In this document: positions 1 to 44,766 of the stretch, piece after piece
Position numbering within the stretch: the first letter of the stretch is position 1
Layout: the number at the start of each line of letters is the position of its first letter
Source of the DNA: Gyrodactylus bullatarudis
Taxonomy: Eukaryota; Platyhelminthes; Monogenea; Gyrodactylidea; Gyrodactylidae
Length of the DNA stretch: 45,032 nt
Assembly (NCBI GenBank): GCA_012064415.1
Contig: SSNU01000024.1
Coordinates: 399,995-445,026 of the forward strand
Direction: 5' to 3'
Notes under the pieces: generated by a model
The model's input: only the letters and a program-made list of their open reading frames with translations
Told to the model about the DNA's origin: nothing
Database searches by the model: none
Translations under genes and position numbers: made by a program

Positions 1-731
1 CATTCTTATATTTGTAATTTTATTATTTCAATGATTATATTTATAATTTCCATTTTTAAAGTAACACTGCTGATGAAGCTTTAAGAAATACGTATTCAGT
101 GTAAATAAAACTCTTGTTTTTTTAATACATCAAATAATTTCTAATTGAGAGATGAAAAAAAGTTATTTCCAAACCATTCCTCACCAGTCTTCCAATCTTG
201 TGGGAAAATTTGAATAAAGTTTCTATCGTTCTTTCTTACACTTTAGCATTCCTACAATAAATGAGATTAATTTATATATTCAAAATGAAGTCTAGAGAAG
301 GCTGAAAAATTAGAAGTCGACGTACTCTGTACTGTCTTTATAGGTGGAGTTACTGTTGAAAGATAATGAGGTAAGATGAATTAAGCATTAACTTTTAACT
401 CACACATAGAGAAGTGAATAGACCTTTATTCCTTTTCTCCTAATAAAGAAAGAGATTAATATAATTTTTATTAAAATTCAGTTTAAGTAGTTACAAAACT
501 CGATAGTTTCAAGCTTACTTGAAATTTTCGCTTTGGTAAAGTTTATTGTATTTCCTGAAAAAAAATATCATGAGATTATTATTCATTAGAGATGTAATGA
601 ATTTTTACCATTCATTAAATCAAAGTTTTCCATGAAAATTCTGCATATAATTTTGATAACAATGATGTGCGAGATCTAAAATAAATGAAAATTCGTTTGC
701 AATCCCATAGATAGTCGTGCATTGCCTATTT
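1..731. other. AT-rich non-coding sequence with a possible element relic and two weak micro-exon candidates
   Basis: No ORF of note. At 64-112 the plus strand carries a hammerhead-like core (CTGATGA ... GAAA) flanked by ACACTG and CAGTGT, followed by AATAAA; a Penelope-like 3' end is the likeliest source. Minus-strand units at 519-530 (CGAAAATTTCAA, donor GTAAGC) and 240-251 (GAATGCTAAAGT, donor GTAAG) fit phase 2 and could continue the micro-exon gene. Confidence 0.35.
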
Positions 732-2634: not shown

Positions 2635-3154
2635 GCCTATTTTCCCAAAATTCTGATCTCATTTCTCATACGAAATCAACTCAGTTACCCTATTACTATT
2701 GATCAGAATTTGTAGGCCTAGGGTCCAATGATCATAGGAACTTTTTATTTGACACCAATATTATTGGATAATAGTTCTCGGACCAATCAGAGTACTTGAT
2801 TTTCATTTGTATTTTTCGGATTGTTATCGTATGAGTCGGTACATATTGTTCAGGATCCTTTTCTCAATAAGATAAAATAATAGTTTCACCATGCATTCCA
2901 AGTTATATATATCAAAGAATATATAGTTTTTTAGGAAGTGACTTTGAAAAGCCGTAATGCTTTTTTTGCTATTTTTAAGTATATAAATACTATTTTCTAA
3001 AAAAATTATTGCTATTTGTTTTACCGCCCTATTCACAATTAATAATGATAATTTTATCTCTCACTCGTAGCTTCATTTAAGAAATATTTACGTCAATTGT
3101 AGATTAATTTTACATAGATTAAATGAAATAACGGTTCTTGAAAAGCTTGCTTAC
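2635..3154. other. AT-rich stretch downstream of the Merlin element
   Basis: It holds the right copy of the Merlin target duplication and then plain AT-rich sequence. The 70-codon minus-strand reading at 2824-3036 has no recognisable features. No micro-exon unit was accepted here. Confidence 0.4.
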
Positions 3155-6100
3155 GCGCTACTATGAAGTAAATATAATTGAGACCATTATTAATCATACA
3201 TTGAATAGTTAAATATTAATTAAGATCGATTGTTGTCAAATTTAATCTGGCTCATTTTATAGAACGTACTCGTATTTCCTACGGAATTTAATTCAATGCA
3301 ATCTTCTACATGTTTTTTCATGTTGACTAACTTCTCTTCTTTCTTTTTACTAAATTAAATTGAGATAAAAACCTGTCATAGAAAGAAATCGTTACAACAA
3401 ACTCTTTCTTCAGACTAGATCATACATATAATAACCAGTTTTAATCCGATTTACTCAATAACAGTTCTTTAAGAATATGTTATGATGAGTATAGGATAAG
3501 AGACATACTCTTTCTTAACTCTGAAAACAATTGAATATGAATTCATGTGTTCTAATAAAGGTAATCAAGTATAATCTGTTCAAACATTCGCTTTCAGTTA
3601 TTCTCAATTTGTTTGTTCCGCATCAAATAAAAGTTGTTTAAAAATGAGTTTTCACTAACGCAGGTGATGTATCTCTAATGAGAAAGTTATCAATTAATAA
3701 AAAAATTCTTATTTATCAACCGGCTTTAAGGCGTAAAGAATGATTCTTACTGTTTGTATTTTTTTCGTAAACTAAAGAAAAATAATTACGTTATAATTAA
3801 TTGAATACGACTTGTATCATATTTGCATATACATCGAGTTTATATCGAAAAATTACTTACTCTATGATTTCTTCAACAACACTTTTTGGCAAAATTACAA
3901 TAAATCTATTCTTTCTTACACAACCGAATTATTGCTATAATAAGAATATTTATCAGAGAAATTATAATAAATAATAACATTTCTAAAATAAAAAAACTTC
4001 ATTCTCACAATTGAACATCATTTGTACTGTAAGAAAGATTTTGGTAAACGACAAGTATGGTAACAAACTGGCAAAATTAAATTAGAAGACAAAATTTTTT
4101 TTTCACTCACGGATTCAGATTAAAACTTTATACAAAGAATATGATATAAATATGTAGAGAATGTAGGTATTAGAAAAAAATAAAGCTCAAAATATCTGCT
4201 TACTCGTTGAGACTATATGAATATTTCAGTCAATTTGAATTTGAGAAGTTTTTGACTTACTTAATTTCTTTAACCCTTTTATATATAATATAGTTTTATC
4301 GATGAAAAGATATTATAACCGAAATATATTGAATATTTCAAAGAACATACTCTGGTGCCCTTAAATGGTCGGAATTATGGTTATAGAAGAATCGAAATCA
4401 CTAACTTGTATCCTTCTGTGTTGCTATACGAGCAGAGTTATTTTAGATCAAGAGAATTACAGTATCATTAAGAAGTGATTGGGAAAATGATTATCAGGAA
4501 ATTTCTTACATGGAAATGATTGTTGCAAAACCACTAAAATATTCAATATGAGTACATATTCTTGAAATTCAACAGTATATTTCTTACTCATTTTGAAAGC
4601 TGTCATCACTATATCTGTAAAAAAAATTAAAAATATATTTCTAGTTTAATTCAAATACACTATTCCTCACATTTTATTCCTTTAAAAGATAGTAATTTAT
4701 AGTATGTAAATTCTGATGTTTTTAAAAATATTACAAGGAAATTAACAGCTTACACACCTTTTTGGGGCTTCGATTCTTTATTAATAGGGATTAGTTTCAA
4801 ATGAAATAGAATTTTGAATATTTAGTTACGTAGAAGTGTGATCTTCCCTATAATAAATGAATGATGAGCTCATGAAAATATATACTGGAGGACAAAACTT
4901 GCTTTCTATGGCTGAATATTGACCATTAGAGAATTTATCGTCGTACGAACACAAAGTTTTTGAGTCTTGACATCAAAATCCTATAATTTTCTACCAAAAC
5001 AAACTTATTTTTCAGGGATCGTCTATTTGTTGGTCAAAATTTCGAAAACATGAATTACTGGGGTATATTGCTAAACATTTATGAGAATAATCTTCAAATA
5101 ATTAACATACATATTTTCCTCGAATATGATACCACTATAGGGAGATAAGTTAATTATTTAAACTAATTATTAAAAATGATAATTATGGTTAAAAGCTATA
5201 ATAATTATATCCTAAGAGATCAAAATAAAACAAAGAGTAAAACTAACCCTCCTTTCCTAGAATTTTCAGTTAGTGGGAATAGACTGAAAATATTTCAACA
5301 TACATTATCATTTCAGCATCTTGCCTGAAAAATGAAAATTTTTGAGTATGTGATTTTCAAACCAAAATTAGTGATTCGAATTTATAAAACAACTTACACA
5401 GGTATACTGGATATGTGAATTAGCTCATTTTATCATCTCAAATGTATCTTACTTTTCTTGGCTGTTGAAGAATTCATTAACCTCTGAATTATTTGATACA
5501 GAATCATAGAAAGATAGGTCAATTACAGTTGTATATCAATTTAATTTAAATTTTGTGAACTTTTGGCTTGGTATTGCACATAAAATATAAAGGTCCCATT
5601 TGTGTAATATATACTCTTAGATTTTCAGAATCTTACAAAATACTCTTCCTTCTGAATTAATTAGGATTAATTAATTACTAGCTGTTCTTGCAGTAAACCT
5701 TTCAAATCTTACATGTCTCTATTTTGTCTGTTTTGATTTTTAATATAATCGTTATATAAAATTTCACATACACTATACGGCTGAAAAAAAGAAAAATATA
5801 ATTTCGAAAAATACAGTAACTCAAAATGAGTAAATAAACTAATATCATGAAGATCTTACTCAGAGCTTAAAAATATCAAGTATTTATTCCTGCGTTAACA
5901 TATCCAATACATAGTATGTATAGTATATTGAGAATTTAGTATGACTTTTAGTCAATTTACTTACTCAGGATATTTCCTAGGTTTAAGTTTATGTTAAAAA
6001 ATGATTTAATTTAATTTTATTCATCAGAAGAAAAATTCGTTGGATGATGTATCTTACAGTGTTGTTTCAACTCTTCAAGACAAAAATCTCAGATTTGAGA

Positions 6101-6664
6101 AAATATTCAGGTACATATAATAAATATTAAAACACCACCATCATGAAATCTCACGTATTATGAACTGTTCTGAAAGAAGATATGAGTATTAAATATCCTG
6201 TTTATCTGCTCTAACATCAATTGAATATTGCTCTAGGGAAAGCAAACTTACTGAGTTACAGTACTATACACATTTTCTACATAAATACTAATTTTTAAAG
6301 GGAAACGAACACAGCATTGCTAAAGATTTCGTATTACATTTCATTTTTTATCTTACGGATCATTTGGAATTTGAGGACTTTTCCTACAAAAATAAATTTG
6401 AACATCGCATAGAAACTATTCCTTACAATGTCTCTCTTCCATCCCTTTCAATATTGAAAAATTACATTAGAATCATAGATTTTAGAAAATGGAGAAGAAA
6501 GGATTTATTAGTTAATCTTATCATTGATAATTTTATTCAGCCATTAATGTCTTACATGCTCTTCAACGAACTTTAATAATTGAGCAATGTCATGGATATA
6601 ATTTTAAAATAATTTTATTGATAATAATAGTTAATGATATATCGCTCACTAATCTATCAGATTT
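3155..6664 (-). CDS. Tail part B: acidic then Lys-rich segment (32 micro-exons), 3' end not seen
   Basis: Exons: 6650-6664 AAATCTGATAGATTA; 6556-6570 TTCGTTGAAGAGCAT; 6427-6444 GGATGGAAGAGAGACATT (or 9 nt); 6357-6377 (21); 6252-6263 TACTGTAACTCA; 6155-6169 AACAGTTCATAATAC; 6058-6072 AGTTGAAACAACACT; 5965-5976 GAAATATCCTGA; 5860-5865 CTCTGA; 5772-5780 CCGTATAGT; 5713-5718 AGACAT (or 15 nt); 5637-5651 AAGGAAGAGTATTTT; 5453-5461 CCAAGAAAA; 5398-5406 TATACCTGT; 5248-5256 GAAAGGAGG; 5111-5134 (24); 4830-4847 GGAAGATCACACTTCTAC; 4758-4775 AATCGAAGCCCCAAAAAG; 4671-4679 GAATAAAAT; 4588-4599 CTTTCAAAATGA; 4510-4533 (24); 4406-4423 CAACACAGAAGGATACAA; 4351-4359 GGCACCAGA; 4261-4275 GGTTAAAGAAATTAA; 4204-4212 TCTCAACGA; 4111-4125 TTTTAATCTGAATCC; 3920-3934 CAATAATTCGGTTGT; 3861-3881 (21); 3660-3674 AGATACATCACCTGC; 3509-3520 AGTTAAGAAAGA; 3332-3349 TAAAAAGAAAGAAGAGAA; 3155-3160 TAGCGC. 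The reading passes through NLNDFNLNPNNS, VVVEEIIEDTSPAVKKD and KKKEENSA with no stop. Further possible exons lie at 519-530 and 240-251, beyond the Merlin element. Confidence 0.68.
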
Positions 6665-9600
6665 CTGAAAAAATTGAGTTTTCAGTCATGGTACCAAGTT
6701 AGTCTTCATCAGTAAATTTCATAAATGAATCATGAGGCTTACTGAGGTACATTGCTATGAAATATATTTATTATTCACAATTATATATAAACGATTTTAA
6801 GAAATAATCTTACCTGTCATAGCTGAAATTTAATAAGTTGATTTAATAAGTTTAATTTAAGTTGATTAAATATTGACAATTGAATATTTATTATGAAAGA
6901 AACTTACAAATTGACTTGTCTCCTAGAATATTGAAAAGGATTTTAGACTCAAGGAATAAATATCAAGAGAAAATCTCAAAACAATGAATATTACATACGT
7001 ATGAATAGATTCTCTATAGAAATCATAAATACTTGTTAGATAGAAAAAACTCACCCATGATCTCCACTAAAATGACCGAAATTTAGACTGAAATCAAGTT
7101 TAACTTACAAATCTCGTCTTTCCCTAAAAAATAATGGAATATTCCTCTATTCCCGGAGAAGGATAACAAGAACTCACGTAATAACATTAACACTAAAAGG
7201 GTTTTCTATTGGATCATTGTTGAATTAAACAAACCCCAAATTATCCGTGCTAGGAGGAGTATCATTAGTTGAAACAATGATATTCAATTGAAAACTTACT
7301 GGCATCTATGATTTACAAAAGAGTTAGATGCATCAAAGAATTTTTCTAACCTGCATCTAGTGGAAATATTGAATTAGAAAGTTGAAAATATTTCCGAAAA
7401 TAAGGATAAAACATAGAATAAAACTCACCCACAACTAATCCAAACCAGAAAATACCATTTATTTGCTCAAATAGATGTAAGTTTAATTTTTAAAATATGA
7501 TTATAAAACTGTTAAATTACCCATTCAGAGGTCTAAAAATTTTAATAACATCAAGTACTCAACAGATTGAACATGATCAATGAAATATTGCAATAAATTT
7601 TATACTATGAAAAAATTACTTGTTACGGAAGCTAGGAATGAAGTTTTAATTATTTTAAAAGATGTATGTAATTTATTTATCGGTTTCTGAACAGTCGAGC
7701 ATAAAAATAATAGACGTATATTTTAGTTATAAACGTGTCTCTTTGGACTACCCCCGTAATGATATAAATACTTTTACAATGAATTAATTTCAGGCCTTAA
7801 TTACATTTAGACCGTCAAACCTCGAAAACCGATAAGAATAATAAAGTTATAATAATCGTTATAATATCATCGTAAAAATGTATACATAACCTAAAATGTC
7901 GTACTTTTCTTGGGATCTGAAAATAAATTTATGAAGTTAATAATGGATCTCATCTGAAGGATAAATATAAATAACTTACAAGCAGCTTTAATATTGGAAG
8001 GAAATGTATAATTTTGTCAAAATAATGAAGATATGGGAAGTAACAGGAAATGATTAAGCTCACTTGCAACTGAATTAGGTTTTGAAGAAATATCAGTTGA
8101 TTTTTTATCAAGAGATTTCATGAAAATTCAAAATTATTTCAGCTTACCCGCATCTAATGAGATATCATTAACTCGATTATCTTCATTTTTTCACAGTGCA
8201 GACGTACGCAGCCGGTGGCCTATTAGAAAATCTTCATGAAAAGTTGAAAGAGAGGATGAATATGTAGGCCTATGTGTTGGGAGGTATTTTTTTGCTTGCC
8301 TTTCGAGTAAAAATGATAAATAGAATATCCAGTGTAAAAGATGAAATTGGTAATCATCTCAAAAATCAGATTTACTTTTCTAACTTACATATTTAAACTA
8401 TTTGGATAAAATGAATACCTTTTCAATGTTATTAATACCATGATATTTTAATAGATGAATACGGAGAATCAGATTCGTCAATATATTCCACTTACTCTCC
8501 ATCACCGTAGCTTGAAATTGAACATTAACGCTCAAAACACTTAGACTTACCTGTTTATCTCAGTTCTTTGCATTACATAAAGTAATATATAAAATAAATA
8601 ACTTACCGAGTAGATGAACTGGTCTGCCCAGTTCTGCTGTAACAAAATAATATTTGAGTAAACGTTGTATCGTGTAGTAAATACGAGAAAAGTTTAGTTT
8701 ATATGAAAATAGCAGATCGAATATTTGTAGTTATAGAAGAAAAAGTTTTATTCACCAGATGTACATTTCTTTATGGTTCATCAGTAGTGACACATAAATA
8801 ATGATAAAAGTTTTAAATTCAATGAAAATAATATTTTACAAATTTTGAAAGAAGTATAGTAAAAGTTGAAAATATAAGAATATAATGTGAGCTGAAAAAA
8901 CACCAAAACTCTTCAATAAATAGTAACAGTGAAGAGAAAAGTGAAAAAGCTCACATAGGCCAGTACAATTGAAGATTATAAGAGTAATTTTTCTGAACAC
9001 ACAGGTTTGGTTTAAAGTAATTGATGAAGAATTTCTCCCTCACCCACAAATCTGTGCTGTCATCACCCGCATTTTTATACAAAATTGAGAAATTTAAACC
9101 AAACCTGTGTGTTCAGAAAAATAGTCTTCGCCTCAGATTTGACACTGACGCAAAATATGTGTATTTTCAGCTTAAAGTTTTTTTGCGAACCAATCAAAAA
9201 ATACCCTTAAGAACTGCGAAAGACAAGGATCAATTTTGAAAGAAAAAAAATTTTATTTGATCGTGATCAGACCTCAAAATACGGATCAAAAACAGGGTTT
9301 GAAAACTAATTTTTCTCGATTTCGAAATAAAAAGTTTATTTGACATTTTTGACGTCTAAAAACCAAAAAATTAGAATTTTCGCAAAAATTTGCTACTTGG
9401 TCGTGTGATCGACCTTAAAAATCCGATCGGATCATGGAGAAAAAATTTTTTTTTGGAATCTTGATCTGTTGTTTGTTGGTCGTTTGAGTTAATTAGCCGA
9501 TAAGAATCGATAAATAATTTTATTTTTCGAAGTTAAATTTTATTTGCAAGTATTCTGACAATTTTTCAGCATAAACATTTTTTATACATTCATAGTTTTA

Positions 9601-39600: not shown

Positions 39601-42600
39601 TTCTAAAATAATTTGGTAATTTTAAGAAATATATAAAATAGCTTTTAAAATCTTTACTAATTTTTTTCAAATAACTCACTTTGTTCTAATATTAATAGTT
39701 ATTAATTTTGAAACGAAAGTGACTAAACAAAAAAGAAGAGGTTCCACTGGTTAGCTCATTAATTTGTTGATAGTAGTTGATATTTCTTAATTTATAATGT
39801 TTATGTTATAGGTTCCATCAAAATCAAAGACTATTTTAAAGTCGTAGGCATATTTTAAAATTTTAAATGAGGAAGGTTGAATATCAGCAAATACAATATT
39901 GAAAAGAAGTGGTCCAACTCTAGATCCTTGTCGGACTCCTAAATTGATTATTTGAATATTTGATCTTTGACCATTACATTCTACAAATTGATTCCTATTA
40001 ATGAGATAGTTTTCCAGATAGTTTAAAAGTCTACAGCAGATATCTTTCTTATGACAGACTTAAAGTATAGTTGGGGAGACTTTATCAAAGGCTTCAAGAT
40101 CAATGTATACAACAACAACTTTTTTCTTTTTGCTGTTTAAGTAAAAGATTTAGCTTAGAAATTGATAAAGATTAGTTTTACATGACTTACCCTTGCAGAA
40201 GCAATGTTGATTTGGGTTAATAATGTTGTTGTTTACAGTTTTCCTTATTTGAATAAACAGAAAGGAGTCAACGATGGAGTGTTGACTGTTGCGAAATAGG
40301 TCTGAATTCATTTGAGTCTTTTTTTGGAAGAGAAATAAGTTTTGTTGTAAGGAAATTTTTGGGGATAATATTTTCATCAAAGGATTTTTAAAATAGATTA
40401 TGTTATAATTTTGAACCAAGTAGTTCTTCAGGGAACCTTTCTCTCCCTTTCTTTTTCTACAGATAGACCAATACAAGCCAGAAGACAACATAGTTAGGTA
40501 GCAAGCAAATAACGTTATAGTCAAATTATATATGTTATTTAGGAATGTGCAGTGACCATTGAGCAAAATATTCATGCTAATATTGTAGATTTCTCGTCGA
40601 TTCTTGAAATTAAGCTTTGAAGCATATTAAAGAATTGAGTATATGACATGAAGTTATGATTGATCTCACCTCCATATCTCGAGTTGTGTCTTAGATTGTG
40701 AGGGTTGAACTGAGGTGATGTATCACTATAGTATACGTCTGTTTTCTCTAACCTTCCCCCATGAGTTAGGAACCCGATAATAGTAATATTTTTGATGAAG
40801 TTCGACAATATTATCGTTCAAATTTTAAGAATAATAATCTTAACTCCTTGGCAATAATGTTGAAACACTTACTGTCTAATTATTCTTGTTAGATATAGAA
40901 ATTTTAGAGTAGAAATTCAATTTAAATAAATAAAAGATGGAAAATTTATTTACACTACTCGACTTATTACTTACTTACGGTTGCTATCGATATTAAAAGT
41001 TTAATTTATTGGTGAGAAATCTATTCTACCTTAAGTTTATGTTTAAACTCATAAAACTCACATGTGATCCTGCCTAAATTTGAGTGAGGGTTAAATAGTT
41101 TTTTTAGTAAATTCGTGTATATTTTCGTGAGATGGAAAAATATTCCTATTTAGTTCTTATAAGTTTACTAGTTAAGTCTAAATTTTATTCACTCAAAGAA
41201 TTTTCTGGAAAAAAATCAGAAATATTACTTATTCTGTTTAGATATGCATAATATGTACATTGATGGTAAAAGATTTAACACTTTGTAAACTATGTATGTA
41301 TATTTCTTCCTTACTTCAAAACCCTATTAATTATGAATTGTTCCTATAAATTTTCTCATTGATAGGAAGATTTAAATATTATTGAATATTCGAATCTGAG
41401 ACTTACAGCAGCAATCTTGAATTAATGATCGATAAAATTCTGAATTACTTAACAGGAACTTACTTTTTACTTTAAAAGGTAGATAATATAAGTTTTTCAC
41501 TTTTATAACTTACTAGCAACATCTGAATTTCATAGAAAATTTATCAACATTATTCAAGATACAAATTGAAATCAAAATTGCATTTTATTATCAAACTTAC
41601 GCCGTTCCACTGGAAAAGCACGTGAATTGAAGAAGGAATAGTATTGAAATAACAAATTCTTAGATATCTTGAAATAAGTAATCCTGAGAGTATATTCAGA
41701 ATATAAAATTTAGAAGGATTCAATTTCACTTACATGTCACAACTAAATAGAAGATTTTTTTAAATATATTAAAAACTGTGGAGACATAATCAATTTCATT
41801 TTTATAAAATATGGTCAAATATGGACATACGAGGCACATCTAAATAAAAATTTGAAATGGATTATTACGATTATGGATATTTTAGAAGTTCTTAAATTTA
41901 TAAAAAAATTAATAAATTCAATATTTTTCCATAGTAATCTTTTTACTAAACTGAAGTTAGATTATTTTTGTATAAAAAACTTTTTTTTGATCTATTCAGA
42001 TGTAAAATCTTTTTAGATTTCTCTAACAACATATGCTTTGCTAGAAGTCAAATTATTTATAACTAACTTTAAGCTACATATTTCAATCCTGAATGAATTC
42101 TTTTCTTAATGTCAACCTTAGTTTCTATTTATCTGACTTAATTTAATTTTTTAATCTATTTGAGCACTTACGCTTTACTAAATTAAAGAAAGTAATCACT
42201 GATTACTAATCAGCTTGGTTTATAAACTTTAATATGCCGGAGAATTCAATATCATTATTTTTATTTAAATATTTATGCAAACAAATTTGAATCTCTGAAT
42301 TAAATATGCCAATCAGATATTAAAATTTTAATGGATATTTGGTATGTTTGTGTTTCAGACTACTCGGATAAAATTATCAAGAATTTTGTGAATTCTTATT
42401 ATTAACTTAAACTTTAAATAGAGTATAGCTCACCTCATTACTCCATCACTTCTATAATTTCACGATAAATTAAATTATCTCAATAATCATTGATGAAAAA
42501 TTACTTTTTTCTTCTACATGAAGTGCTAAAATTGGAAATTTAGTACTCAGTTATTTTTGTTCAAGTGGGACATACTGGCAGCAACTGTAAAAAAATTCAA

Positions 42601-44766
42601 AATTGAGGCGCACAGTTTTGAAAAAAATTTTTTTTTAAATCAAGTTATCTCAACTTACTTTGAACATCCATCTGAAGAACCTCTAAAATTTGAAATGAAT
42701 AATTTAATCATGGATATTCTTCACATGATAATAATTAGGACTTAAAAGATATGTTCTAATAAATGGATTCTTTAGCCCTAAAGAAAAATGAAAATATGCA
42801 TTTTTGGTTTTTGTGATGGCATATTTTAAGTATTTATGAAATTTTAGTAATAATTTCTTTACTTAAAAGTTGTACTTAACTTTTTACACAATTTACTTCT
42901 CAGCTGCAGATCTTTTCCATCGAAAAATTCATCAAGAAACTCTTTTTCTTATATCTTGAACTTTCCAAAAATAAGGATTCACCATATTTCTTGGATTTGA
43001 AAAAAGCCCATTGATATTTCGTACTTGAATCTGATTGATTAAAAAGGAATAAGAATATAAATTTCTCTATTTGTAACAAGCGATTTTTGATGAATCATGA
43101 TTGAATAAGAACAAGACATATTTTAAGCGTTAATGATTAGAAATAGGATCTAATATGAATTTAAAACTTTGAACCTTAGTGTCCTATTTTAGAGCTTTAA
43201 AGGGTTTAAACCCTGTAGATTCGCTAATTAAAATATAACTTTCATGACATCTGGAGGCTCTAATAATAATTCAGAAAATGGCTTACGCGAAGCATCTTTT
43301 GAAAAATAAGAAAAATTAAACAGTCTTGAATTATAAAACTCACATACAACACCTATTTAAAGAGTATAAATGTAAATTTATCCATGGCTAGAAGCTTTGA
43401 TCAAGTCAACTGTTTCATAAATCAAATCTACTTACCCAGGACATCTGTATTATAGAGAGAAGTTTTGTTTAAAAAACATATTTTTAAAAAATTGCCAGCC
43501 CACTTGAAAAACACCACCCTGGAAAAATTAAATCTTAGAGACTTATCAATTATTATTATTCCTATTTTTTGATTTGTGTATTATTATTTTCGATCAAATA
43601 TGTTAAATTTGTGACTCGCTCATGTTCACTTTAATAATTGAATAGCTTGTTAGTATAGAGCCTTCCTCAGTATTTTTTTTCTCATCTCACTCATAATGCC
43701 TTTAAAATGATTCATTTATCAATGTATGCAATTGATATCGCTTACCTGGTGATTTCTTGTCTATAATAAAAATGAGATGTTTTTTTTAATTGATTATAAT
43801 TAAAAATTATTTTTAGATATTTCGGAGTATGAAGTTTAATTCAATATATAATCGTAATGGATCTCTTACAAAATATTTCTGTAAATGAATCGAATATATT
43901 AGATATAAAAATATCCGAAGCTTACATCATGACATTTTTCCTATAAATCAAAAAATGAATAAATGGATGCAAAGTATCTCATTTGGCTAGACTTACATCC
44001 AGGGCTCATTTCTGAAATTAAATTATATATGGATTAGTATATCCAAAAGGTGCGATTTTATAAAAGTCACTTACCGACTAAGAAATAAAAGTTAACATTC
44101 AGAGTTATTACAAGAACATCGTGGTGATTAGAAAGCGTAAAAAAGCAAATAAAACCTGCCTTACTTCTTATTGCTGCACAAAAAGGGTTTTAGTAAGAAA
44201 TAAGCTAATTTATTAAGAATTGCACAAATTTTCAGGAATATATTAAGTCTTACCCAAAGATCCTAAATATACATGAGTTGATTAATGGAATTATATATAC
44301 GCGTAAATACATGTGAATAAATGATATTTAACAGGGCAATAATAACATTGTATGCAAGAATATCTCACATGTTCAAGCTTTAGAAGTTATTCAATTAGAG
44401 AATAGTTCAGAGAATTTGAGGATTTTCGAAATTTCGAAAATAACTTACAATTCCTCTCTTTACAGCAATAAGATATTAGGCATGATTTGAATTCGAAAAG
44501 ATATCTATCTAAAGATTAGTTATTTCACTTACAAGTCTTGACTGTGGTATTAAATTAAAACAAAGAATTTTGAGAACGAACTTTTGACGACTGTTTATGT
44601 TATGATTAAACAACATTTTGGATAAAGATTACTGTGTAAGAACGCTAACATTTTGTAAGAAAATAGGATATTTTTCTCTTACTATGAATTTTTGAAAACA
44701 TTCTTATGATGTAAATGTTCAATAATGAAACAAAAATGGAGATATTGAAAAATACATACTCTACTT
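3155..44766 (-). CDS. Giant micro-exon gene, about 240 candidate exons, Cys-rich modular protein of unknown function (partial at both ends)
   Basis: On the minus strand, short units recur every 50-400 nt: pyrimidine-rich tract, AG, 3-27 nt, then GTAAG or GTGAG (less often GTATGT, GTTAGT, GTAATT or GCAAGT). Almost every unit is a multiple of 3 in length. Read with one base completing the previous codon and two bases starting the next (phase 2), the units contain no stop, although many contain stops in another phase, for example CTGTGATAA and TTGTAATAA. Junction codons are also open: units ending in TA are followed by C or T. The conceptual protein has three homologous Cys-rich modules, a Gly-Met repeat, hydrophilic linkers and an acidic/Lys-rich tail. 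No start codon, signal peptide or terminal stop is visible, so the gene should extend past both ends. The architecture resembles schistosome micro-exon genes (established), but I know no gene of this exon number. Individual exon borders are predictions; the overall gene is well supported by repeat homology. Confidence 0.87.
6743..8633 (-). CDS. Tail part A: small Cys cluster and following segment (21 micro-exons)
   Basis: Exons: 8607-8633 (27 nt; 30 nt if the other AG of a CAGCAG acceptor is used); 8551-8565 AACTGAGATAAACAG; 8496-8510 CTACGGTGATGGAGA; 8389-8397 TTTAAATAT; 8208-8219 GCCACCGGCTGC (donor GTACGT, uncertain); 8158-8163 ATGCGG; 8064-8069 TTGCAA; 7980-7985 CTGCTT; 7905-7916 ATCCCAAGAAAA (donor GTACGA); 7620-7631 CTTCCGTAACAA; 7521-7532 ACCTCTGAATGG; 7429-7434 TTGTGG; 7351-7356 ATGCAG; 7300-7305 ATGCCA; 7178-7192 TGTTAATGTTATTAC; 7108-7122 GGAAAGACGAGATTT; 7055-7066 TGGAGATCATGG; 6999-7013 AGAATCTATTCATAC; 6908-6922 GAGACAAGTCAATTT; 6814-6822 CTATGACAG; 6743-6754 CAATGTACCTCA. 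The reading is SYGDGDL, then CGCNCLSQENF, then NGCGCRCH, so Cys reappears here in six 6-nt exons, one Cys per exon. Confidence 0.74.
8990..9122. repeat. Inverted repeat with arms of about 28 bp inside the left arm
   Basis: The sequence around TTCTGAACACACAGG...TTTAAA at 8990-9018 recurs as its reverse complement at 9094-9122, separated by about 75 bp. The right arm of the parent element lacks this piece. Confidence 0.65.
9123..9991. other. Non-coding part of the Tc1-containing element
   Basis: AT-rich sequence between the left inverted repeat and the transposase stop codon. The 9121-9190 stretch matches the inner right arm (about 11400-11460) in inverted orientation. Nothing else recognised. 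Confidence 0.4.
9992..11081 (-). CDS. Tc1-like transposase with two inferred ultra-short introns
   Basis: The first exon, to about 10755, holds the paired helix-turn-helix DNA-binding region (PWLTVTQHENIKQLHDRG, then RSVRTIQNVLRG). The reading stops, but removing 29 nt (GTAAGA...TTTTCAG, about 10727-10755) continues in frame as FYDNVRKIGFHLVNGLV. The catalytic domain follows: W-x-RIIFADEVTF, then MDNASPQ. A second removal of 26 nt (GTAATT...TTTTAG, about 10265-10290) leads in frame to TVRFFRNNRLTTLQGYPANS and then PDLNPIEN. D, D and E are present with 35 residues between the second D and the E. It ends LDAKGQHTKY at a stop at 9992-9994. The usual His of DNAxxH is Gln. With both introns removed I see no disabling lesion, so it may be intact. 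Confidence 0.78.
11821..14632 (-). CDS. Hydrophilic Ser/Thr/Asn/Lys block after module 3 (28 micro-exons)
   Basis: Exons: 14615-14632 GGACAGTGGAATGCAAGG; 14487-14495 TCTCAATAT; 14400-14411 CGAAAATAGAGA; 14322-14333 CTATACTAACGA; 14206-14214 CCATGGTCG; 14050-14067 CAAGCATAACTTCAAAAA; 13722-13736 AATAGAAAACAAAAA; 13608-13619 TACATTTAAATC; 13549-13560 ACACAAGAAACA; 13436-13450 TAGTTCACATGTTGA; 13381-13398 GATAAATGAAACTGTTAC; 13328-13339 ATCATCGAAAAT; 13236-13244 AATTCAACC; 13149-13160 AGGTTCAAATGG; 13057-13062 CCATGG; 12993-13004 TGTCCCACCTCA; 12903-12911 AAATGTAAT; 12796-12816 (21 nt); 12721-12735 GACCTCTCAGAAATA; 12635-12640 CTCTAG; 12549-12557 TGAAAACAG; 12452-12463 ACCACCTACAAT; 12378-12392 GTATGATCTACTCAC; 12290-12293 ACAG; 12202-12207 AATGGC; 12116-12123 ATGTTAGA; 11992-12000 GGGTAACAC; 11821-11835 TTACAATAGCACCAA. 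Two exons (13328, 12549) use a GCAAGT donor, i.e. GC-AG introns. The third 12-15-4-6-8 cassette lies at 12463-12116. No Cys is encoded. Confidence 0.72.
12116..12463 (-). repeat. 12-15-4-6-8 nt exon cassette, copy 3
   Basis: Exons 12452-12463 (12), 12378-12392 (15), 12290-12293 (4), 12202-12207 (6) and 12116-12123 (8). The reading is PPTMYDLLTQNGMLE, matching copies 1 and 2 at the D-x-L-x-[DEQ]-[NH]-x-[IM]-x-[DE] core. Confidence 0.7.
14798..16973 (-). CDS. Module 3, C-terminal part (about 13 micro-exons, partly diverged)
   Basis: Exons: 16965-16973 ACTCGAACT; 16844-16852 AGTCCTTAG; 16641-16652 AAGAGACTATGC; 16541-16549 GAGAAATAT; 16437-16442 AAATAG (weak); 16318-16329 GCTGTCTAGTCA; 16134-16142 ATCACATGA (donor GTATGT); 16023-16031 AAGTTTCAT; 15893-15898 ATGCAT; 15758-15772 AGCTCGAAATGATAA (donor GTAATC); 15486-15494 CTGTAAAAG; 14930-14935 ATGCCG; 14798-14812 ATACAATCCAAACAG (donor GTTTGA). 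The reading is LELVLRRDY, then SHESFICIARNDNCKRC, then RYNPN. It is the most diverged of the three module ends: several partner exons are merged or missing and donors are weaker. A palindromic insertion occupies the intron between 15486 and 14930. Confidence 0.66.
15144..15319. mobile_element. Near-perfect palindrome, hairpin MITE candidate
   Basis: Arms of about 82 bp (15144-15225 and 15238-15319, start GATGTTATTGGTTGAAAT) are almost exact reverse complements around a 12-bp centre. No clear target duplication. It lies in the intron between micro-exons 15486 and 14930. Confidence 0.75.
17021..18231 (-). CDS. Module 3, Cys core (13 micro-exons)
   Basis: Exons: 18223-18231 TTGCAATGG; 18131-18139 ATGCTGTTT; 18047-18055 ATGTGTAAG; 17801-17833 (33 nt, weak donor GTGATT, doubtful); 17684-17707 (24 nt); 17601-17609 CTGTTGTCA; 17537-17557 (21 nt); 17479-17496 AAACTCTCCTCATAACGC; 17362-17370 TTGTAATAA; 17252-17260 CTGTGATAA; 17168-17176 TAATTCTGG; 17072-17080 ATGCTGCTT (donor GTATGT); 17021-17026 TAAAAA. 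The reading is CNGCCLCV, then QCSNCCHYACNMKK, then ACNNCDNNSGCCFKKL. The last exon TAAAAA is identical to its module 1 partner at 41464-41469. The loop between the second and third Cys clusters is longer than in modules 1 and 2 and gains one extra Cys. Confidence 0.8.
18276..19513 (-). CDS. Module 3, first third (15 micro-exons, including 10-, 20- and 3-nt exons)
   Basis: Exons: 19504-19513 TTATGGTAGC (10 nt); 19408-19427 (20 nt); 19357-19368 CGTCATTGATAA; 19308-19316 TCGTACTCT (donor GTTAGT); 19203-19211 AGAATCTCT; 19143-19151 CTTAAAATG; 19083-19091 GTTGTGCGA; 18995-19003 AAATAAATA; 18890-18892 CAA; 18814-18828 CAAGCTTGATGAAAT (donor GTGAAT); 18727-18741 GACGAATAAAATGGA; 18647-18655 ATATTTTAT; 18537-18551 GCTGAGTGTTCATCA; 18443-18451 GCATTATAA; 18276-18296 (21 nt). 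The 10- and 20-nt exons together keep the frame. The reading is SYGSGSFQNTYVID, then LESLLKWLCENKYNKLDEM, then VHQHYNFKDSSLS. Exon 19143 ends in TG and 18995 ends in TA; the next exon starts with G or C, so no stop forms. Confidence 0.78.
18890..18892 (-). CDS. 3-nt micro-exon CAA (module 3)
   Basis: TTTTCTAG is followed by CAA and then GTAAGTCAC. The preceding exon ends in TA, so the C of CAA completes TAC (Tyr). It lies between a 9-nt and a 15-nt exon, as TCG does in module 1. Confidence 0.63.
19554..21184 (-). CDS. Gly-Met-Gln repeat block between modules 2 and 3 (about 10 micro-exons)
   Basis: Exons: 21167-21184 ATCAACAACTTACACAAC; 21032-21043 AATTATGCACGG; 20867-20884 (broken donor, see separate entry); 20693-20710 ACATGGCGGCATGCAAGG (donor GTATTT); 20590-20607 ACATGGAGGTATGCATGG; 20350-20367 TAATGGTGGTATGCAAGG; 20218-20235 AACCAGGACTATCACCAC; 20128-20139 CACCATTTACGA (donor GTATGT); 19889-19906 AAATGGTAGAATTCAAGG; 19554-19565 TCATCAAACAAG. 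A possible 3-nt exon GGT lies at 20790-20792. The 18-nt exons encode H/N-G-G-M-Q/H-G hexapeptides and are clearly repeated copies; 14615-14632 and 25180-25194 carry related sequence. The block reads as a low-complexity spacer. Confidence 0.77.
20867..20884 (-). pseudogene. Dead copy of the 18-nt Gly-Met micro-exon
   Basis: The minus-strand unit AAATGGCGGCATGCAAGG keeps a TATCTAG acceptor and differs by one base from the exon at 20693-20710. It is followed by AATAAG where GTAAG would be expected, so the donor GT is lost and the unit is probably skipped. Confidence 0.6.
21340..21948. mobile_element. Merlin-like MITE, 609 bp
   Basis: Inverted repeats of about 190 bp (21340-21525 and 21757-21948) share AAGTTGACCGGAC near the ends. 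They are flanked by ACAATTTTT (21331-21339) and ACGATTTTT (21949-21957), a 9-bp duplication with one mismatch. The ends contain GTGCGTGGGTATAT, also present near the Merlin ends (about 792-805). No transposase. It lies in the intron between 22305 and 21184. Confidence 0.7.
22305..23919 (-). CDS. Module 2, KL.IVL helix and C-terminal CIC...NC.C segment (17 micro-exons)
   Basis: Exons: 23914-23919 TACAAA; 23857-23865 ATTGTCTAT; 23770-23778 AGTTTTAAG; 23351-23362 ACAAGAAGATAT; 23260-23268 TCACGAAAA; 23169-23180 GTTATTAGAGAA; 23054-23065 TCTATATGATGA; 22979-22993 AAAATATGTTTCCGT; 22889-22897 GTTTCACAA; 22816-22824 TAAATTCAT; 22763-22771 ATCATTCTT; 22684-22689 GTGTAT; 22598-22606 ATGTTCTAA; 22516-22524 CAAAATGAA; 22440-22445 CTGCCA; 22386-22391 CTGCAG (donor GTTAGT); 22305-22319 CTTCGATCCAAATGG (donor GTATGT). 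The reading is KLSIVLRQEDIHEKLLENLY, then HNKFISFLCICSNKMNCHC, then SFDPNG. This is the cleanest uninterrupted run of the gene; donors and acceptors are nearly all canonical. Confidence 0.84.
23961..25126 (-). CDS. Module 2, Cys core (11 micro-exons)
   Basis: Exons: 25118-25126 ATGCCAAGG; 25048-25056 TTGCTGCAT; 24955-24963 TTGTCTTAG; 24795-24818 (24 nt); 24674-24682 CTGTTGCCA; 24518-24529 TGGACAATTTAG; 24435-24440 AGAAGG; 24323-24331 ATGTCTCTC (donor GTATGT); 24164-24172 CTGTGATAG; 24057-24065 TCAATCAGC (donor GTAGGT); 23961-23969 ATGTTGCTA. The reading is CQGCCICLRDVETQCESCCH, then GCLSCDSQSACCYTKL across the border into the next block. The last exon, ATGTTGCTA, is identical to its module 1 partner at 41514-41522. 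Acceptors are short pyrimidine tracts ending in TTTAG, TTCAG or TCAAG. Confidence 0.82.
25180..26406 (-). CDS. Module 2, first third (12 micro-exons)
   Basis: Exons: 26398-26406 AGAAAAATT; 26335-26343 AGGCTCAAT; 26248-26256 CCTGCAAAT; 26140-26148 ATTATTCGA; 26037-26045 AGTTAAGGA; 25944-25958 CTCGGATAATATAGA; 25750-25764 GAAGGGATATATGAT; 25659-25667 AGACTTTAT; 25569-25583 GAATGATGTAACTGA; 25501-25509 ACATTACAA; 25413-25421 TCAATATAA; 25180-25194 TGGCGGTATTCATAG. The reading is LGSILQILFEVKD, then VTEHYNQYNGGIHR. It parallels module 1 and module 3 closely but lacks the 3-nt exon those two share. The 20-nt exon that should start it, at 26556-26575, has lost its acceptor and is listed separately. 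Confidence 0.78.
26556..26575 (-). pseudogene. Dead copy of the 20-nt module-start exon (module 2)
   Basis: The minus-strand sequence reads T-M-F-Q-N-T, like S-F-Q-N-T in module 3 exon 19408-19427, and keeps a GTAAG donor. The two bases where AG should stand are TC. Modules 1 and 3 keep intact acceptors at the same point. Confidence 0.55.
26861..27097 (+). CDS. Small plus-strand ORF, 78 codons, weakly PC4-like
   Basis: It starts MQTADQQESY and continues LGRYIIISFFNGKEQRVSI, with a C-terminal half rich in Ser, Glu and Lys; AATAAA follows the stop within 10 nt. The order R-Y-[IV]-x-[IV]-x-x-F-N-G-K ... P ... L-x-x-[IE] resembles the PC4/p15 single-stranded-DNA-binding fold, but similarity is weak and judged by eye. 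It is the only compact plus-strand reading here not explained by a shadow frame. It could be a retrocopied fragment or an exon of a nested gene; chance is possible. Confidence 0.3.
   Translation: MQTADQQESYVPILKQDLGRYIIISFFNGKEQRVSIQKGRSMQPSEETLDFSSSKEVSQIKIVSPKLEEIESDIYGLL
27345..27400 (+). ncRNA. Hammerhead-ribozyme-like motif from a Penelope-type element
   Basis: GGTCTGAAGAGAACCGACGAAA matches the CUGANGA...GAAA core and is followed by a self-complementary AATAAAGCTTTATT. A close relative lies on the minus strand at 29595-29650. Stem II is reduced to about one pair, so activity is doubtful. Confidence 0.4.
27560..28010 (-). pseudogene. Possible hAT/BED-zinc-finger transposase relic
   Basis: One minus-strand frame reads KYKIRYPDEFVTIEGTFRCK and then ICVNCD; a nearby frame reads SKHQRTENSKLPQAKLNILD. 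A BED-type finger before many hAT transposases has the shape C-x2-C ... H-x4-H, and the T/S-KH-containing piece fits its second half. There are several frameshifts and stops. Assigned by eye with low confidence. Confidence 0.3.
28184..38332 (-). CDS. Linker 1: charged, Cys-free segment between modules 1 and 2 (about 28 micro-exons)
   Basis: Exons: 38312-38332 (21 nt); 37753-37761 ATTTGAATT; 37625-37630 CTCTAT; 37536-37553 AATATCTCATCTCAAGGA; 37445-37456 TACATTAACCAA; 37047-37061 GCAAGATATACTGGT; 36953-36956 TGAT; 36873-36878 AATCAT; 36704-36711 ATATTTGA; 36616-36621 TATGAA; 36563-36574 TACAAATGGCAG; 36301-36306 TGTTGA (weak); 36008-36019 AACTATAACCAA; 35834-35848 ATATGATCGCTTGCA; 35776-35779 AGAA; 35420-35425 CATCGT; 35362-35369 ATGATGGA; 35261-35269 TTATCATAA; 35162-35170 AAGAGATAG; 32951-32959 CGACAGCCA; 32290-32301 AGATTTATTTAG; 31597-31608 GAACAGTGAAGT; 31484-31495 TGTTTCTGAGGA; 31319-31327 GGTTATAAC; 31224-31238 CAGAAGGAGGAGAAA; 28663-28671 ATCTAATAG; 28394-28411 AGCCCTACATATACCTAT (weak); 28184-28198 GAAAGGAAATTATAA (donor GTAGGG). 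The reading starts FDEEEP, contains two copies of a 12-15-4-6-8-nt cassette, and ends in a basic RRRRK stretch. The introns hold the Penelope, MULE and TIR elements. Confidence 0.68.
28672..29500. other. AT-rich intron sequence with a diverged repeat
   Basis: About 29270-29440 resembles 8900-9060 of the Tc1-containing element (shared AACACCAA.AACTCTTCAATAA and GAGGAATTTCTCC-type stretches), so it is probably an old fragment of the same family. The rest shows nothing recognisable. Confidence 0.4.
29541..30050 (-). mobile_element. Penelope-related fragment nested in the left TIR of the MULE
   Basis: It interrupts a TIR that is continuous at the right end, and is bordered by AATTTTTTT-like runs on both sides. 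It is clearly richer in G+C than its surroundings. On the minus strand, 30037-29771 reads RKRNASTSPQQPKARRKR, ending TQQIHKFFTANKQ. A hammerhead-like motif (CTGAAGAGGGCCGACGAAA) follows at 29595-29650. The basic tail resembles that of the Penelope-like element at 33.26 kb, so this is probably a 3' end of a relative. The overlapping second frame (29940-29707) is a shadow. Confidence 0.5.
30258..30611 (+). pseudogene. MULE transposase C-terminal fragment
   Basis: The clean frame 30435-30611 reads HEYLSKIDAKFWVECYFP, then RFGNLMTNIAESSKSSLMEL, then RQKYP. The RxGxxTSNxAESxNSxL motif is typical of MULE transposases. Upstream, SRDEQDLAFIKAF in another frame belongs to the same domain, so at least one frameshift is present and the catalytic part is missing. 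Confidence 0.68.
31724..32230. mobile_element. Unclassified non-autonomous element with GAGCAYCAAA ends
   Basis: GAGCACCAAA at 31724 is matched by the complement of GAGCATCAAA at 32230. Both ends carry repeated GCTACTTTT motifs in opposite orientation, especially 32125-32220. No clear target duplication and no coding capacity. A hAT-like or similar cut-and-paste element is possible. The small plus-strand ORF 31819-32022 has no recognisable content. Confidence 0.45.
33066..33115 (-). ncRNA. Hammerhead-like motif at the 3' end of the Penelope-like element
   Basis: GAGTCTGATGAGATCCGGTGAAA on the minus strand carries the conserved CTGATGA and GAAA boxes. GGTG upstream can pair with CACT downstream as stem I, and ATAAGCTTTAT can fold as stem III. 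Stem II is short. Such ribozymes are known in Penelope-like elements. Confidence 0.45.
33258..33684 (-). pseudogene. Basic C-terminal extension of the Penelope-like element with a PIP-like end
   Basis: Downstream of the endonuclease one frame reads ELATQLGFTGKKRFTNKKKL, then, after a stop, KKGRKRKSLSGQPTMDRYV and a terminal RRKQ. QPTMDRYV fits Q-x-x-[ILM]-x-x-[FY]-[FYV], the PCNA-interacting (PIP) pattern. The nested fragment at 29.8 kb ends similarly with TQQIHKFF. Confidence 0.45.
33685..35125 (-). pseudogene. Penelope reverse transcriptase plus GIY-YIG endonuclease, broken
   Basis: Order on the minus strand: RT motifs 1-2 (RLYLLLKVHKD), RT3 (MVSFDVSSLFTNVPLGEAVK), RT4 (FFFKQINGVAMGSPI), a TGA at 34604-34606 where Ser is usual, then RT5 (LYARYLDDTFLVLD) and RT6 (NIEFTKEDEKN, LNFLDVLVTK). 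A frameshift near 34330 leads to the thumb region (FSPACQKKSLVRNEF), another near 34110 to the connector. Then comes the endonuclease: GVIYFFKCKCGSAYVGQT and VKARIKEHLR, the GIY-YIG signature of Penelope-like elements. An in-frame stop also lies near 34945. The N terminus is missing and the copy cannot make an intact protein. Confidence 0.85.
35362..36019 (-). repeat. 12-15-4-6-8 nt exon cassette, copy 2
   Basis: Exons 36008-36019 (12), 35834-35848 (15), 35776-35779 (4), 35420-35425 (6) and 35362-35369 (8). The reading is TITKYDRLQEHRMMD. The 12-nt exons of copies 1 and 2 share the ending TA.CCAA. Confidence 0.72.
36704..37456 (-). repeat. 12-15-4-6-8 nt exon cassette, copy 1
   Basis: Exons 37445-37456 (12), 37047-37061 (15), 36953-36956 (4), 36873-36878 (6) and 36704-36711 (8). 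The 4-nt exon moves the phase from 2 to 0 and the 8-nt exon moves it back. The reading is TLTKQDILVDNHIFD. Copies 2 and 3 (36019-35362, 12463-12116) have identical exon lengths. Confidence 0.72.
37762..38311. other. Intron sequence without recognised feature
   Basis: About 550 nt between micro-exons 38312 and 37753. Donor-like CTTAC/CTCAC complements are present, but no unit satisfies acceptor, length and frame together. The same holds for 38333-38836. Confidence 0.4.
38837..39685 (-). CDS. Module 1, C-terminal CIC...NC.C segment (11 micro-exons)
   Basis: Exons: 39680-39685 AACAAA; 39588-39602 AACTCCAGTTTCTAC (donor GTAGGT); 39480-39488 ATTACACAA; 39392-39400 TGAATTTAT; 39339-39347 ATTACTGTT; 39247-39252 ATGCAT; 39173-39181 ATGTGATGA; 39083-39091 CGAGAAAAA (donor GTACGT); 38988-38993 TTGCAA; 38934-38939 CTGCAA; 38837-38851 AGCCAATTCTTATGC. 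The reading is HNEFILLCICDDEKNCNC, against HNKFISFLCICSNKMNCHC in module 2. Ten consecutive exons have exactly the same lengths (15-9-9-9-6-9-9-6-6-15) as module 2 exons 22993-22305. A LINE relic lies in the intron separating this part from the Cys core. Confidence 0.82.
39800..40800 (-). pseudogene. LINE (non-LTR) reverse-transcriptase relic
   Basis: The minus-strand readings give IINPNQHCFCKGKSCKTNLY (family: QHGFRKGxSCxTNL), then KVVVVYIDLEAFDKVSPTIL, then LLNYLENYLINRNQFVECNG, then IINLGVRQGSRVGPLLFNIV, then YAYDFKIVFDF in place of YADD. This is the RT core of a LINE of the jockey/CR1/RTE group. There are stops (for example near 40150), and the catalytic YADD is altered. The reading 40808-40572 may be upstream sequence of the same element but is not recognisable. 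It occupies the intron between micro-exons 40873 and 39680. Confidence 0.75.
40873..43444 (-). CDS. Module 1, Cys core (18 micro-exons)
   Basis: Exons: 43436-43444 ATGTCCTGG; 43344-43352 GTGTTGTAT; 43287-43295 ATGCTTCGC; 42897-42911 ATCTGCAGCTGAGAA (less certain, donor GTAAAT, no match in module 2); 42659-42682 (24 nt); 42576-42584 TTGCTGCCA; 42434-42451 AAGTGATGGAGTAATGAG; 42172-42177 TAAAGC; 41831-41839 ATGTGCCTC; 41734-41742 TTGTGACAT; 41601-41609 TGGAACGGC; 41514-41522 ATGTTGCTA; 41464-41469 TAAAAA; 41407-41415 ATTGCTGCT; 41315-41323 GGTTTTGAA; 41062-41073 GCAGGATCACAT; 40975-40983 CAACCGTAA; 40873-40884 AATAATTAGACA. The reading gives CPGCCICFA, then DGCSNCCQSDG, then ACASCDIGTACCYKKLLVL. 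Most Cys codons lie in 9-nt exons carrying one or two TGT/TGC triplets. The exons match module 2 exons one for one except for the 15-nt exon and one length difference (18 versus 12 nt). Confidence 0.8.
41840..42171. other. Intron without recognised feature
   Basis: About 330 nt between micro-exons 42172 and 41831. One unit at 42068-42073 (CTTAAA, donor GTTAGT) fits the frame, but module 2 has no counterpart, so I did not accept it. Confidence 0.35.
43504..44766 (-). CDS. Module 1, first third: helical-looking segment before the Cys core (14 micro-exons)
   Basis: Exons (minus-strand sequence): 44760-44766 AAGTAGA; 44683-44702 (20 nt); 44533-44541 TCAAGACTT; 44449-44457 AGAGGAATT; 44369-44377 CTTGAACAT; 44254-44262 GATCTTTGG; 44165-44173 CAATAAGAA; 44075-44077 TCG; 43997-44011 AAATGAGCCCTGGAT; 43926-43940 GAAAAATGTCATGAT; 43870-43878 AAATATTTT; 43746-43760 ACAAGAAATCACCAG; 43691-43699 GCATTATGA; 43504-43518 GGTGGTGTTTTTCAA (donor GTGGGC). 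The 7- and 20-nt exons together restore the frame. The reading includes LEEFLNMIFGNKN and ends in ITRHYEVVFFK, just before the first Cys cluster. The same order recurs in module 2 (LGSILQILFEVKD ... VTEHYNQYNGGIHR) and module 3 (LESLLKWLCENKY ... VHQHYNFKDSSLS). The 43504 exon has a weak donor; I accept it because modules 2 and 3 have a 15- or 21-nt exon at the same place. Confidence 0.75.
44075..44077 (-). CDS. 3-nt micro-exon TCG (module 1)
   Basis: A strong acceptor (TTTATTTCTTAG) is followed by TCG and then GTAAGTGAC. It lies between the 9-nt exon 44165 and the 15-nt exon 43997. Module 3 has a 3-nt exon in the same place (18890-18892), which argues against chance. Confidence 0.65.

What the first reader, a model, noticed from the sequence alone, without database searches (positions are those of the whole stretch)
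3155..44766. A single gene made almost entirely of about 240 micro-exons
Seen: AG - 3 to 27 nt - GTRAG units recur throughout about 42 kb of one strand and join into one open frame. The protein would be roughly 900 residues encoded in well under a tenth of the DNA. Known: micro-exon genes exist in schistosomes and related flatworms, and bicycle genes in aphids, with far fewer exons as far as I know. ORF-based and most ab initio annotation would call this region empty.
Basis: partly seen in the sequence, partly recalled or inferred. Interest (0 to 1): 0.96.

Follow-up and report, generated by a model that had tools for sequence, protein, structure and literature searches.

The report
Giant flatworm gene of micro-exons
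One strand of this DNA, likely from a parasitic flatworm, carries hundreds of exon-like units, mostly 6 to 15 letters long and open in a single reading phase, that are predicted to be spliced in order into one very long cysteine-rich protein, likely with more exons than titin, the human gene cited as having the most.

Summary
Minus-strand GTRAG donors outnumber plus-strand ones 221 to 34, and acceptor AGs pile up 6, 9, 12, 15, 18 and 21 nt upstream. I exons of 3-36 nt in the window (10 on its plus strand by the same rule). One reading phase alone is open (phase-2 introns): 0 stops in 582 codons, against 96/791 and 31/582. Adjacent exons avoid junction stops (2/503, expected 13); skipped pairs do not (19/588, expected 14). 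The window is one third of the array: 653 called exons over 131 kb, about 5% expected false, cut off by the contig end. The spliced product holds six tandem ~145-residue Cys-rich domains, 30-58% identical, each cut by 42-47 introns at largely the same places (583 shared intron pairs, null 171), with a one-codon exon kept in five of six. Mitochondrial code and gene order (compared from recall) point to a parasitic flatworm. It fits a published structural definition of micro-exon genes but has over 30 times the 10-20 exons of schistosome MEGs, and more than titin's 363. The domain matched nothing in the searches. No transcript was available; single-gene status and function are inferred.

The parts
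185..44590 (-). 261 predicted symmetric micro-exons (3-36 nt, mean 12), all introns phase 2 in the model; transcription runs from high to low coordinates; array continues beyond both window ends
38332..44583 (-). Repeat domain R4 (159 residues, 46 exons in the final model) of the Cys-rich domain
22168..26456 (-). Repeat domain R5 (142 residues, 42 exons)
14632..19309 (-). Repeat domain R6 (146 residues, 42 exons)
44075..44077 (-). 3-nt (one-codon) exon in R4, at the position shared with R1, R2, R3 and R6
18890..18892 (-). 3-nt (one-codon) exon in R6, same homologous position
19889..20710 (-). Four similar 18-nt exons (20693-20710, 20590-20607, 20350-20367, 19889-19906) giving G-G-M-Q-like repeats, with two unlike exons between; small-scale exon duplication
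12735..13439 (-). Linker block (8 exons) resembling the linker found twice between R3 and R4 outside the window
3155..8636 (-). 61 exons of the C-terminal half: a Cys-rich CGC/CRC stretch, then an acidic region
185..530 (-). Further downstream exons (519-530, 404-439, 326-352, 240-251, 185-196), beyond a transposon-bearing intron; the array continues to a likely terminal exon outside the window
26611..31223 (-). Longest intron of the model in the window (4613 nt)

Best explanation
The minus strand carries about 250 exon-like units of 3-36 nt in the window, open in a single phase, which are predicted to be spliced in order, together with about 390 more called beyond the window ends, into one giant Cys-rich repeat protein of what is likely a parasitic flatworm. 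Shown from sequence: the splice-site pairs with three-divisible spacing, the single open phase, avoidance of stops only at adjacent junctions, and six diverged copies of a ~145-residue domain with about 42 introns at largely the same positions. Inferred: splicing works by intron definition across short AT-rich introns, with a near-consensus GTRAGT donor and an acceptor set as the first AG after an AG-free stretch, since exons of one to five codons are too small to be recognised across the exon. Inferred: splicing is essentially constitutive, because skipping an exon keeps the frame but makes stop codons at or above the chance rate, so skip products are not under selection. Inferred: the gene grew by duplication of exon groups, which costs no frame because every boundary is phase 2; units of 2 exons, 9 exons and whole ~42-exon domains are all found duplicated. 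Inferred with low confidence: the product is a soluble scaffold or secretory protein whose 16 conserved cysteines per domain are tied by disulfides or metal.
For: Donor excess and three-periodic acceptor distances. Zero stops in 582 codons in one offset only. Junction stops 2 of 503 adjacent pairs, shuffled mean 13.2, minimum 6 in 500 shuffles; by-two pairs 19 of 588 against 14.0, by-three 17 of 587 against 14.1; window alone 0 of 235 against 3.7, by-two 6 of 259 against 3.8. Six repeats 30-58% identical with 583 shared intron pairs, null mean 171, maximum 216 in 2000; 34 columns hold an intron in all six, 18 in one only. Codon position 3 is least conserved in 14 of 15 repeat pairs and tied for lowest in the other, while homologous introns under 200 nt (R2, R3, R4, R6) average 0.61 identity against 0.58 for random pairs. 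Distance to the previous AG is at least 20 nt for 413 of 469 model acceptors (median 34, control 11); since the site model itself disfavours G upstream, I repeated it without acceptor scoring: 324 of 434 acceptors at 6, 9, 12 or 15 nt, against 16 of 80 at neighbouring off-three distances. 3-nt exon at the same place in five of six repeats. Duplications: tandem two-exon units, pairs 83-94% identical, and a 1081-bp nine-exon block 99.8% identical. Contig 340-386 kb gives 11 calls and four 10-kb stretches of other contigs 0-4 per strand, against 15-70 per 10 kb in the array. Mitochondrial code and gene order.
Against: No transcript or peptide was available. About 5% of called exons are expected to be false. 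Phase, length and absence of internal stops are built into the final model. One junction stop remains in the 2652-residue conceptual product, in a probably miscalled stretch of R1; two adjacent-junction stops remain at the strict cut. The 5' end is beyond the contig and no start codon or signal peptide was seen. A 9.65-kb gap (contig 482,036-491,687) could hide a gene boundary; I read only about a third of it. No homologue of the domain was found in three protein searches, Pfam, NCBIfam or, beyond weak Cys-driven hits, PDB by sequence (41, 66, 83), so function is a guess.
Confidence: 0.87

Rival explanations
1. Two or more neighbouring micro-exon genes on one strand rather than one: for instance a 5' gene (contig about 491.7 kb to beyond 516.9 kb) and a downstream gene with the six repeats (482 to 386 kb).
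For: The largest gap (9.65 kb) lies at 482,036-491,687 and low density surrounds it; the 5' product has its own basic stretch and differs from the repeats.
Against: The same open phase continues across the gap; in the roughly 3.3 kb of it that I read there is a transposase-like open stretch and no evident first or last exon (by eye); other long introns hold transposon frames. Even so, the downstream part alone has 523 called exons, 481 at the strict cut, with about 5% expected false.
Confidence: 0.3
2. An alternative-splicing generator: exons are optional cassettes and skipping makes protein variants, as proposed for schistosome micro-exon genes.
For: All called exons are divisible by three and in one phase, so any skip keeps the frame; skipping is described for flatworm MEGs (PMC7653826, passages seen).
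Against: Junctions made by skipping contain stops at or above the chance rate (19 of 588 against 14.0; 17 of 587 against 14.1), while adjacent junctions avoid them. This does not exclude skipping of a few particular exons.
Confidence: 0.12
3. A decaying relic: a once functional micro-exon gene that is no longer used.
For: Transposon fragments in introns; one residual junction stop.
Against: Zero stops in 582 window codons, 0 of 235 window junction stops, and codon-position conservation between repeats; the last shows past, not present, selection.
Confidence: 0.03
4. Chance or a compositional artefact of AT-rich DNA.
For: Short AG...GT pairs are common in AT-rich DNA; a loose model over-calls on both strands.
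Against: Strand asymmetry, three-periodicity, phase-specific openness, junction test and repeat alignment all exceed controls.
Confidence: 0.01

Closest known systems
Micro-exon genes (MEGs) of parasitic flatworms (Schistosoma, Echinococcus, Hymenolepis)
   Same: Same structural class: runs of small exons divisible by three, hard for annotation; host is likely a parasitic flatworm (PMC7653826 passages; PMC10526429 passages and section 5 part 1).
   Different: S. [quoted passage not shown] here 653 called exons, mode 9 nt, down to 3 nt, and about 2,650 residues without the 5' end, with a tandem domain. Three published MEG motifs were not found. Skipping is not favoured.
Aphid megacycle gene (bicycle family)
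   Same: A huge gene of over 100 micro-exons with internal tandem protein repeats that share intron positions; internal exons of bicycle genes are almost all phase 2 (PMC9168663, abstract, passages and sections 11-12 seen).
   Different: The M. sacchari megacycle has 118 exons for 2092 residues in about 100 kb (about 53 nt per exon, my division); megacycle was found only in aphids. Here about 12 nt per exon in a likely flatworm, with another Cys pattern. Best read as convergence.
Human titin gene
   Same: Extreme exon number (tandem domains from recall).
   Different: 363 exons, called the largest number, with an exon of 17 kb (PMC12198301, passage seen); here more and far smaller exons.

Membership tests
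Micro-exon gene, structural definition of PMC7653826 | At least seven exons | tested here: met
   653 predicted exons, 261 in window
Micro-exon gene, structural definition of PMC7653826 | At least half of exons shorter than 70 nt and divisible by three | tested here: met
   The final model admits only such exons; without that constraint 577 of 694 calls in 385-517 kb are divisible by three
[quoted passage not shown]
   42 or more consecutive predicted exons per repeat domain
Schistosome MEG protein family | N-terminal signal peptide | not testable with these tools
   The array reaches the contig end, and that end matched no other contig
Schistosome MEG protein family | Conserved N-terminal and CGGL-type motifs | tested here: not met
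   Three of the published motifs tried as patterns, none present; the N-terminus is missing
Schistosome MEG protein family | Small protein (longest 189 residues) | tested here: not met
   2,652 residues in the conceptual product
Schistosome MEG protein family | Exon skipping makes variants | tested here: inconclusive
   Sequence argues against selected skipping; isoforms not observed
Aphid bicycle/megacycle | Symmetric phase-2 micro-exons | tested here: met
Aphid bicycle/megacycle | Occurs in an aphid or close relative | tested here: not met
   Flatworm-type mitochondrial code and gene order, compared from recall
Aphid bicycle/megacycle | Salivary-gland expression, secretion signal | not testable with these tools
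   No transcripts; 5' end missing

The most novel reading that the evidence does not exclude
This is the most exon-rich gene yet seen in any genome, some 600 coding exons averaging four codons, all in one phase and spliced constitutively: a protein domain cut into about 42 pieces was then multiplied six times, showing that a phase-locked micro-exon gene can keep growing by exon-block duplication.
Probability: 0.6. Interest if true: 0.95.

Novelty: new variant of a known kind. Interest (0 to 1): 0.9.

Why it matters
It pushes micro-exon genes from tens to hundreds of exons and from short peptides to a giant repeat protein. Exons of 3-9 nt in runs of forty make a natural test of intron definition and of how two splice sites a few bases apart are used in turn. 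The junction-stop test (adjacent against skipped) offers a way to ask from DNA alone whether micro-exons are constitutive or optional. The uniform phase plus duplications at three scales gives a testable route by which such genes arise, and annotation built on long open frames would leave this region empty of genes.

Tried and rejected
An iterative splice model without a penalty drifted and over-called (469 calls on minus, 371 on plus, 382-416 in shuffles); replaced by thresholded models with controls. Aphid or phylloxerid origin was my first idea from base composition and phase 2; dropped after the mitochondrial code. The exon set drops isolated low-scoring exons by a rule in the script; adjacent pairs were limited to introns under 250 nt (503 of 589); one search used 469 of 665 exons, those with both neighbours within 200 nt. 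The shortest intron (35 nt) is a limit set in the model. The repeat alignment still contains stretches of R1 and R2 that look miscalled. Weak hits were rejected as Cys-composition or chance matches: PsaC E 0.05, Pfam hits all below their cut-offs, NCBIfam best E 0.06. A search of the genome with one repeat as protein found nothing, as expected for 9-nt exons. The one-exon pattern gave 38 places against 45 for the reversed control, so it neither proves nor excludes further arrays; three of the 38 lie near the end of C252 and two led me to C389. Rfam and tRNA scans of part of the mitochondrial contig gave nothing.

Literature: the listings (one search listed 20 of 13,301, one search listed 10 of 62; two searches found none) showed no title on a flatworm gene of hundreds of micro-exons; only asked about Gyrodactylus or monogeneans, and the library is open-licence papers only. 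PMC13041983, PMC4398949 and PMC7923790: passages only; the micro-exon mention in the last concerns Tetracapsuloides bryosalmonae.

Full report
What was checked. On the minus strand GTRAG occurs 221 times, on the plus strand 34 times. Counting CAG, TAG and AAG upstream of those 221 donors, with no assumption about length, gives peaks at 6, 9, 12, 15, 18 and 21 nt, with 85 at 9 nt, and 1-7 at off-three distances from 7 to 17 nt where 9.5 is background. A splice model with a flat length prior finds 222/24/23 exons by length mod 3 on the minus strand against 26/18/22 on the plus strand. In 209 such exons one offset has no stop in 582 codons; the others have 96 in 791 and 31 in 582. That offset means that the introns lie between the second and third base of a codon (phase 2). 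Later models take this phase and three-divisible lengths as given.

In-order joining, from DNA alone. If neighbours are joined, the codon made across each junction must not be a stop; the model does not enforce this. At the strict cut (590 exons), 2 of 503 adjacent junctions (introns under 250 nt) are stops, where shuffled partners give a mean of 13.2 and never fewer than 6 in 500 shuffles. For partners two, three, five and ten exons on, the counts are 19, 17, 15 and 17, at or slightly above the shuffled means of about 14. In the window alone it is 0 of 235 against 3.7 for neighbours, and 6 of 259 against 3.8 for partners two on. So neighbours are joined, and skip products are not kept free of stops. 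The two remaining stop junctions lie at introns of 158 and 98 nt that could hide a missed exon.

Extent. The window is contig C252, 399,995-445,026, of a 77.3-Mb assembly. The array runs from about 386 kb to 516.9 kb, where the contig ends (516,994), all on one strand. The final model holds 653 exons: 70 below the window, 261 in it, 322 above it. Controls by the same rule: 29-37 in four Markov shuffles of the same length, 37 on the whole 177-kb plus strand (10 in the window), 11 on the minus strand of 340-386 kb. The conceptual product is 2,652 residues with one junction stop. A likely terminal exon follows: a pyrimidine-rich acceptor and, in phase, a stop as the ninth full codon (contig about 386,336-386,363, by eye; the model had placed two further weak exons past it). 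The last 2 kb of the contig matched no other place, so the 5' end is missing. Downstream of the largest gap there are 523 called exons, 481 at the strict cut.

The product. Six tandem domains of about 145 residues (R1-R6; R4-R6 in the window) share invariant C-x-G-C-C-x-C ... C-x-x-C-C-H ... C-x-x-C ... C-C-x-x-K-L ... C-I-C ... C-x-C (with two rows trimmed by hand); 16 columns have Cys in at least five of six. They are 30-58% identical. Aligned without using introns, they share 583 intron pairs against a null mean of 171, and 34 columns have an intron in all six. A one-codon exon sits at the same place in R1, R2, R3, R4 and R6. Codon position 3 is the least conserved, tied with position 1 in one of 15 pairs, and homologous introns have drifted close to random identity (0.61 against 0.58 on average, a few up to 0.85). 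So the domains likely duplicated long ago, after the introns were in place. No 19-residue stretch has a mean hydropathy above 1.3, which argues against a membrane span in the part seen. No homologue was found, but I do not know how many flatworms those libraries hold.

How it likely works. Introns are short with two length modes (about 35-60 and 70-90 nt; 35 is the model's floor), and the donor is near consensus. The acceptor's third-last base is almost free (T 205, C 147, A 116, G 1 of 469), but 413 of 469 acceptors are the first AG in at least 20 nt. Because the site model disfavours G upstream, I repeated this on acceptors picked only by their distance from a donor: 324 of 434 have no AG within 20 nt, against 16 of 80 AGs one base off the three-periodic distances. 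That fits scanning from the branch point to the first AG, and intron definition; both are inferences. Some homologous introns keep their length across repeats (46-48 nt in all six at one position); why is open.

How it likely arose. The 5' end holds tandem two-exon units about 320 bp apart, pairs 83-94% identical; a 1,081-bp block of nine exons is duplicated at 99.8% identity 4,338 bp away; and the ~42-exon domain exists six times. Since every boundary is phase 2 and every exon divisible by three, no such duplication costs the frame. A second, smaller micro-exon gene is suggested on C389: 27 of 32 plus-strand exons divisible by three, stops by offset 11/24/3 in 196/169/169 codons, so probably phase 1, with a 763-bp repeat. 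It is a weaker case: the region was chosen, three stops remain in the best offset, and the minus strand there also leans to three (9 of 13). Uniform phase within a gene but a different phase between genes is what growth from a seed exon would predict.

Host. The 14.9-kb contig C13 carries cox1 that reads conserved Asn and Ser only if AAA is Asn and AGR is Ser (the conserved motif is recalled), the code of flatworms and echinoderms. Eight of ten other frames matched mitochondrial families, one of them (nad6) below its cut-off; atp6 and nad2 did not and are named by place, nad4L was not scanned. The order nad4-atp6-nad2-nad1-nad3-cox1-(gap where the rRNAs would lie)-cox2-nad6-nad5-cox3-cob-nad4L on one strand is the one I recall for parasitic flatworms.

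Place among known things. By the structural definition in PMC7653826 this is a micro-exon gene. It differs from published MEGs in scale, domain structure and lack of selected skipping. The aphid megacycle gene is the nearest in layout but has about 53 nt per exon and lies in another phylum. Titin, cited as having the most exons (363), has fewer.

What is not shown. Transcription, the single-gene claim across the 9.65-kb gap, the true start, and the function.

Noticed in passing
L031 (C389:115001-125000), + strand, about 118.7-124.9 kb: Apparent second, smaller micro-exon gene with 6-51 nt exons, mostly divisible by three, probably phase 1, with a 763-bp tandem duplication of several exons.
   Followed up: partly
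L013 (C252 about 385.5-386.3 kb), + strand: Just past the giant gene's 3' end, convergent open stretches look like two small Cys-rich proteins of one family, one with a signal-peptide-like start (read by eye).
   Followed up: no
window 732-2634: DNA transposon with an IS1595-like (Merlin-type by recall) transposase frame (1022-1609, Pfam DDE_Tnp_IS1595) and inverted ends of about 235 bp, lying in an intron.
   Followed up: partly
window 9992-11087, 33685-34894, 39787-40059: Mobile-element frames inside introns: DDE_3/HTH transposase pieces (weak), a reverse-transcriptase-like stretch without a Pfam match (by eye), and a weak RVT_1 match.
   Followed up: partly
C252 395,001-400,000 and 445,001-450,000: Stretches withheld as N (3,835 and 1,056 bases) lie inside the array, so some exons may be uncounted.
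   Followed up: no
Homologous introns across R1-R6: Some introns keep nearly the same length in all or most repeats (46-48, 40-45, 61-63 nt) although most have drifted in sequence; the reason is unexplained.
   Followed up: no
C252 448,500-449,580 and 452,838-453,918: A nine-exon block is duplicated at 99.8% identity, so the gene has changed recently, unless this is an assembly error.
   Followed up: partly
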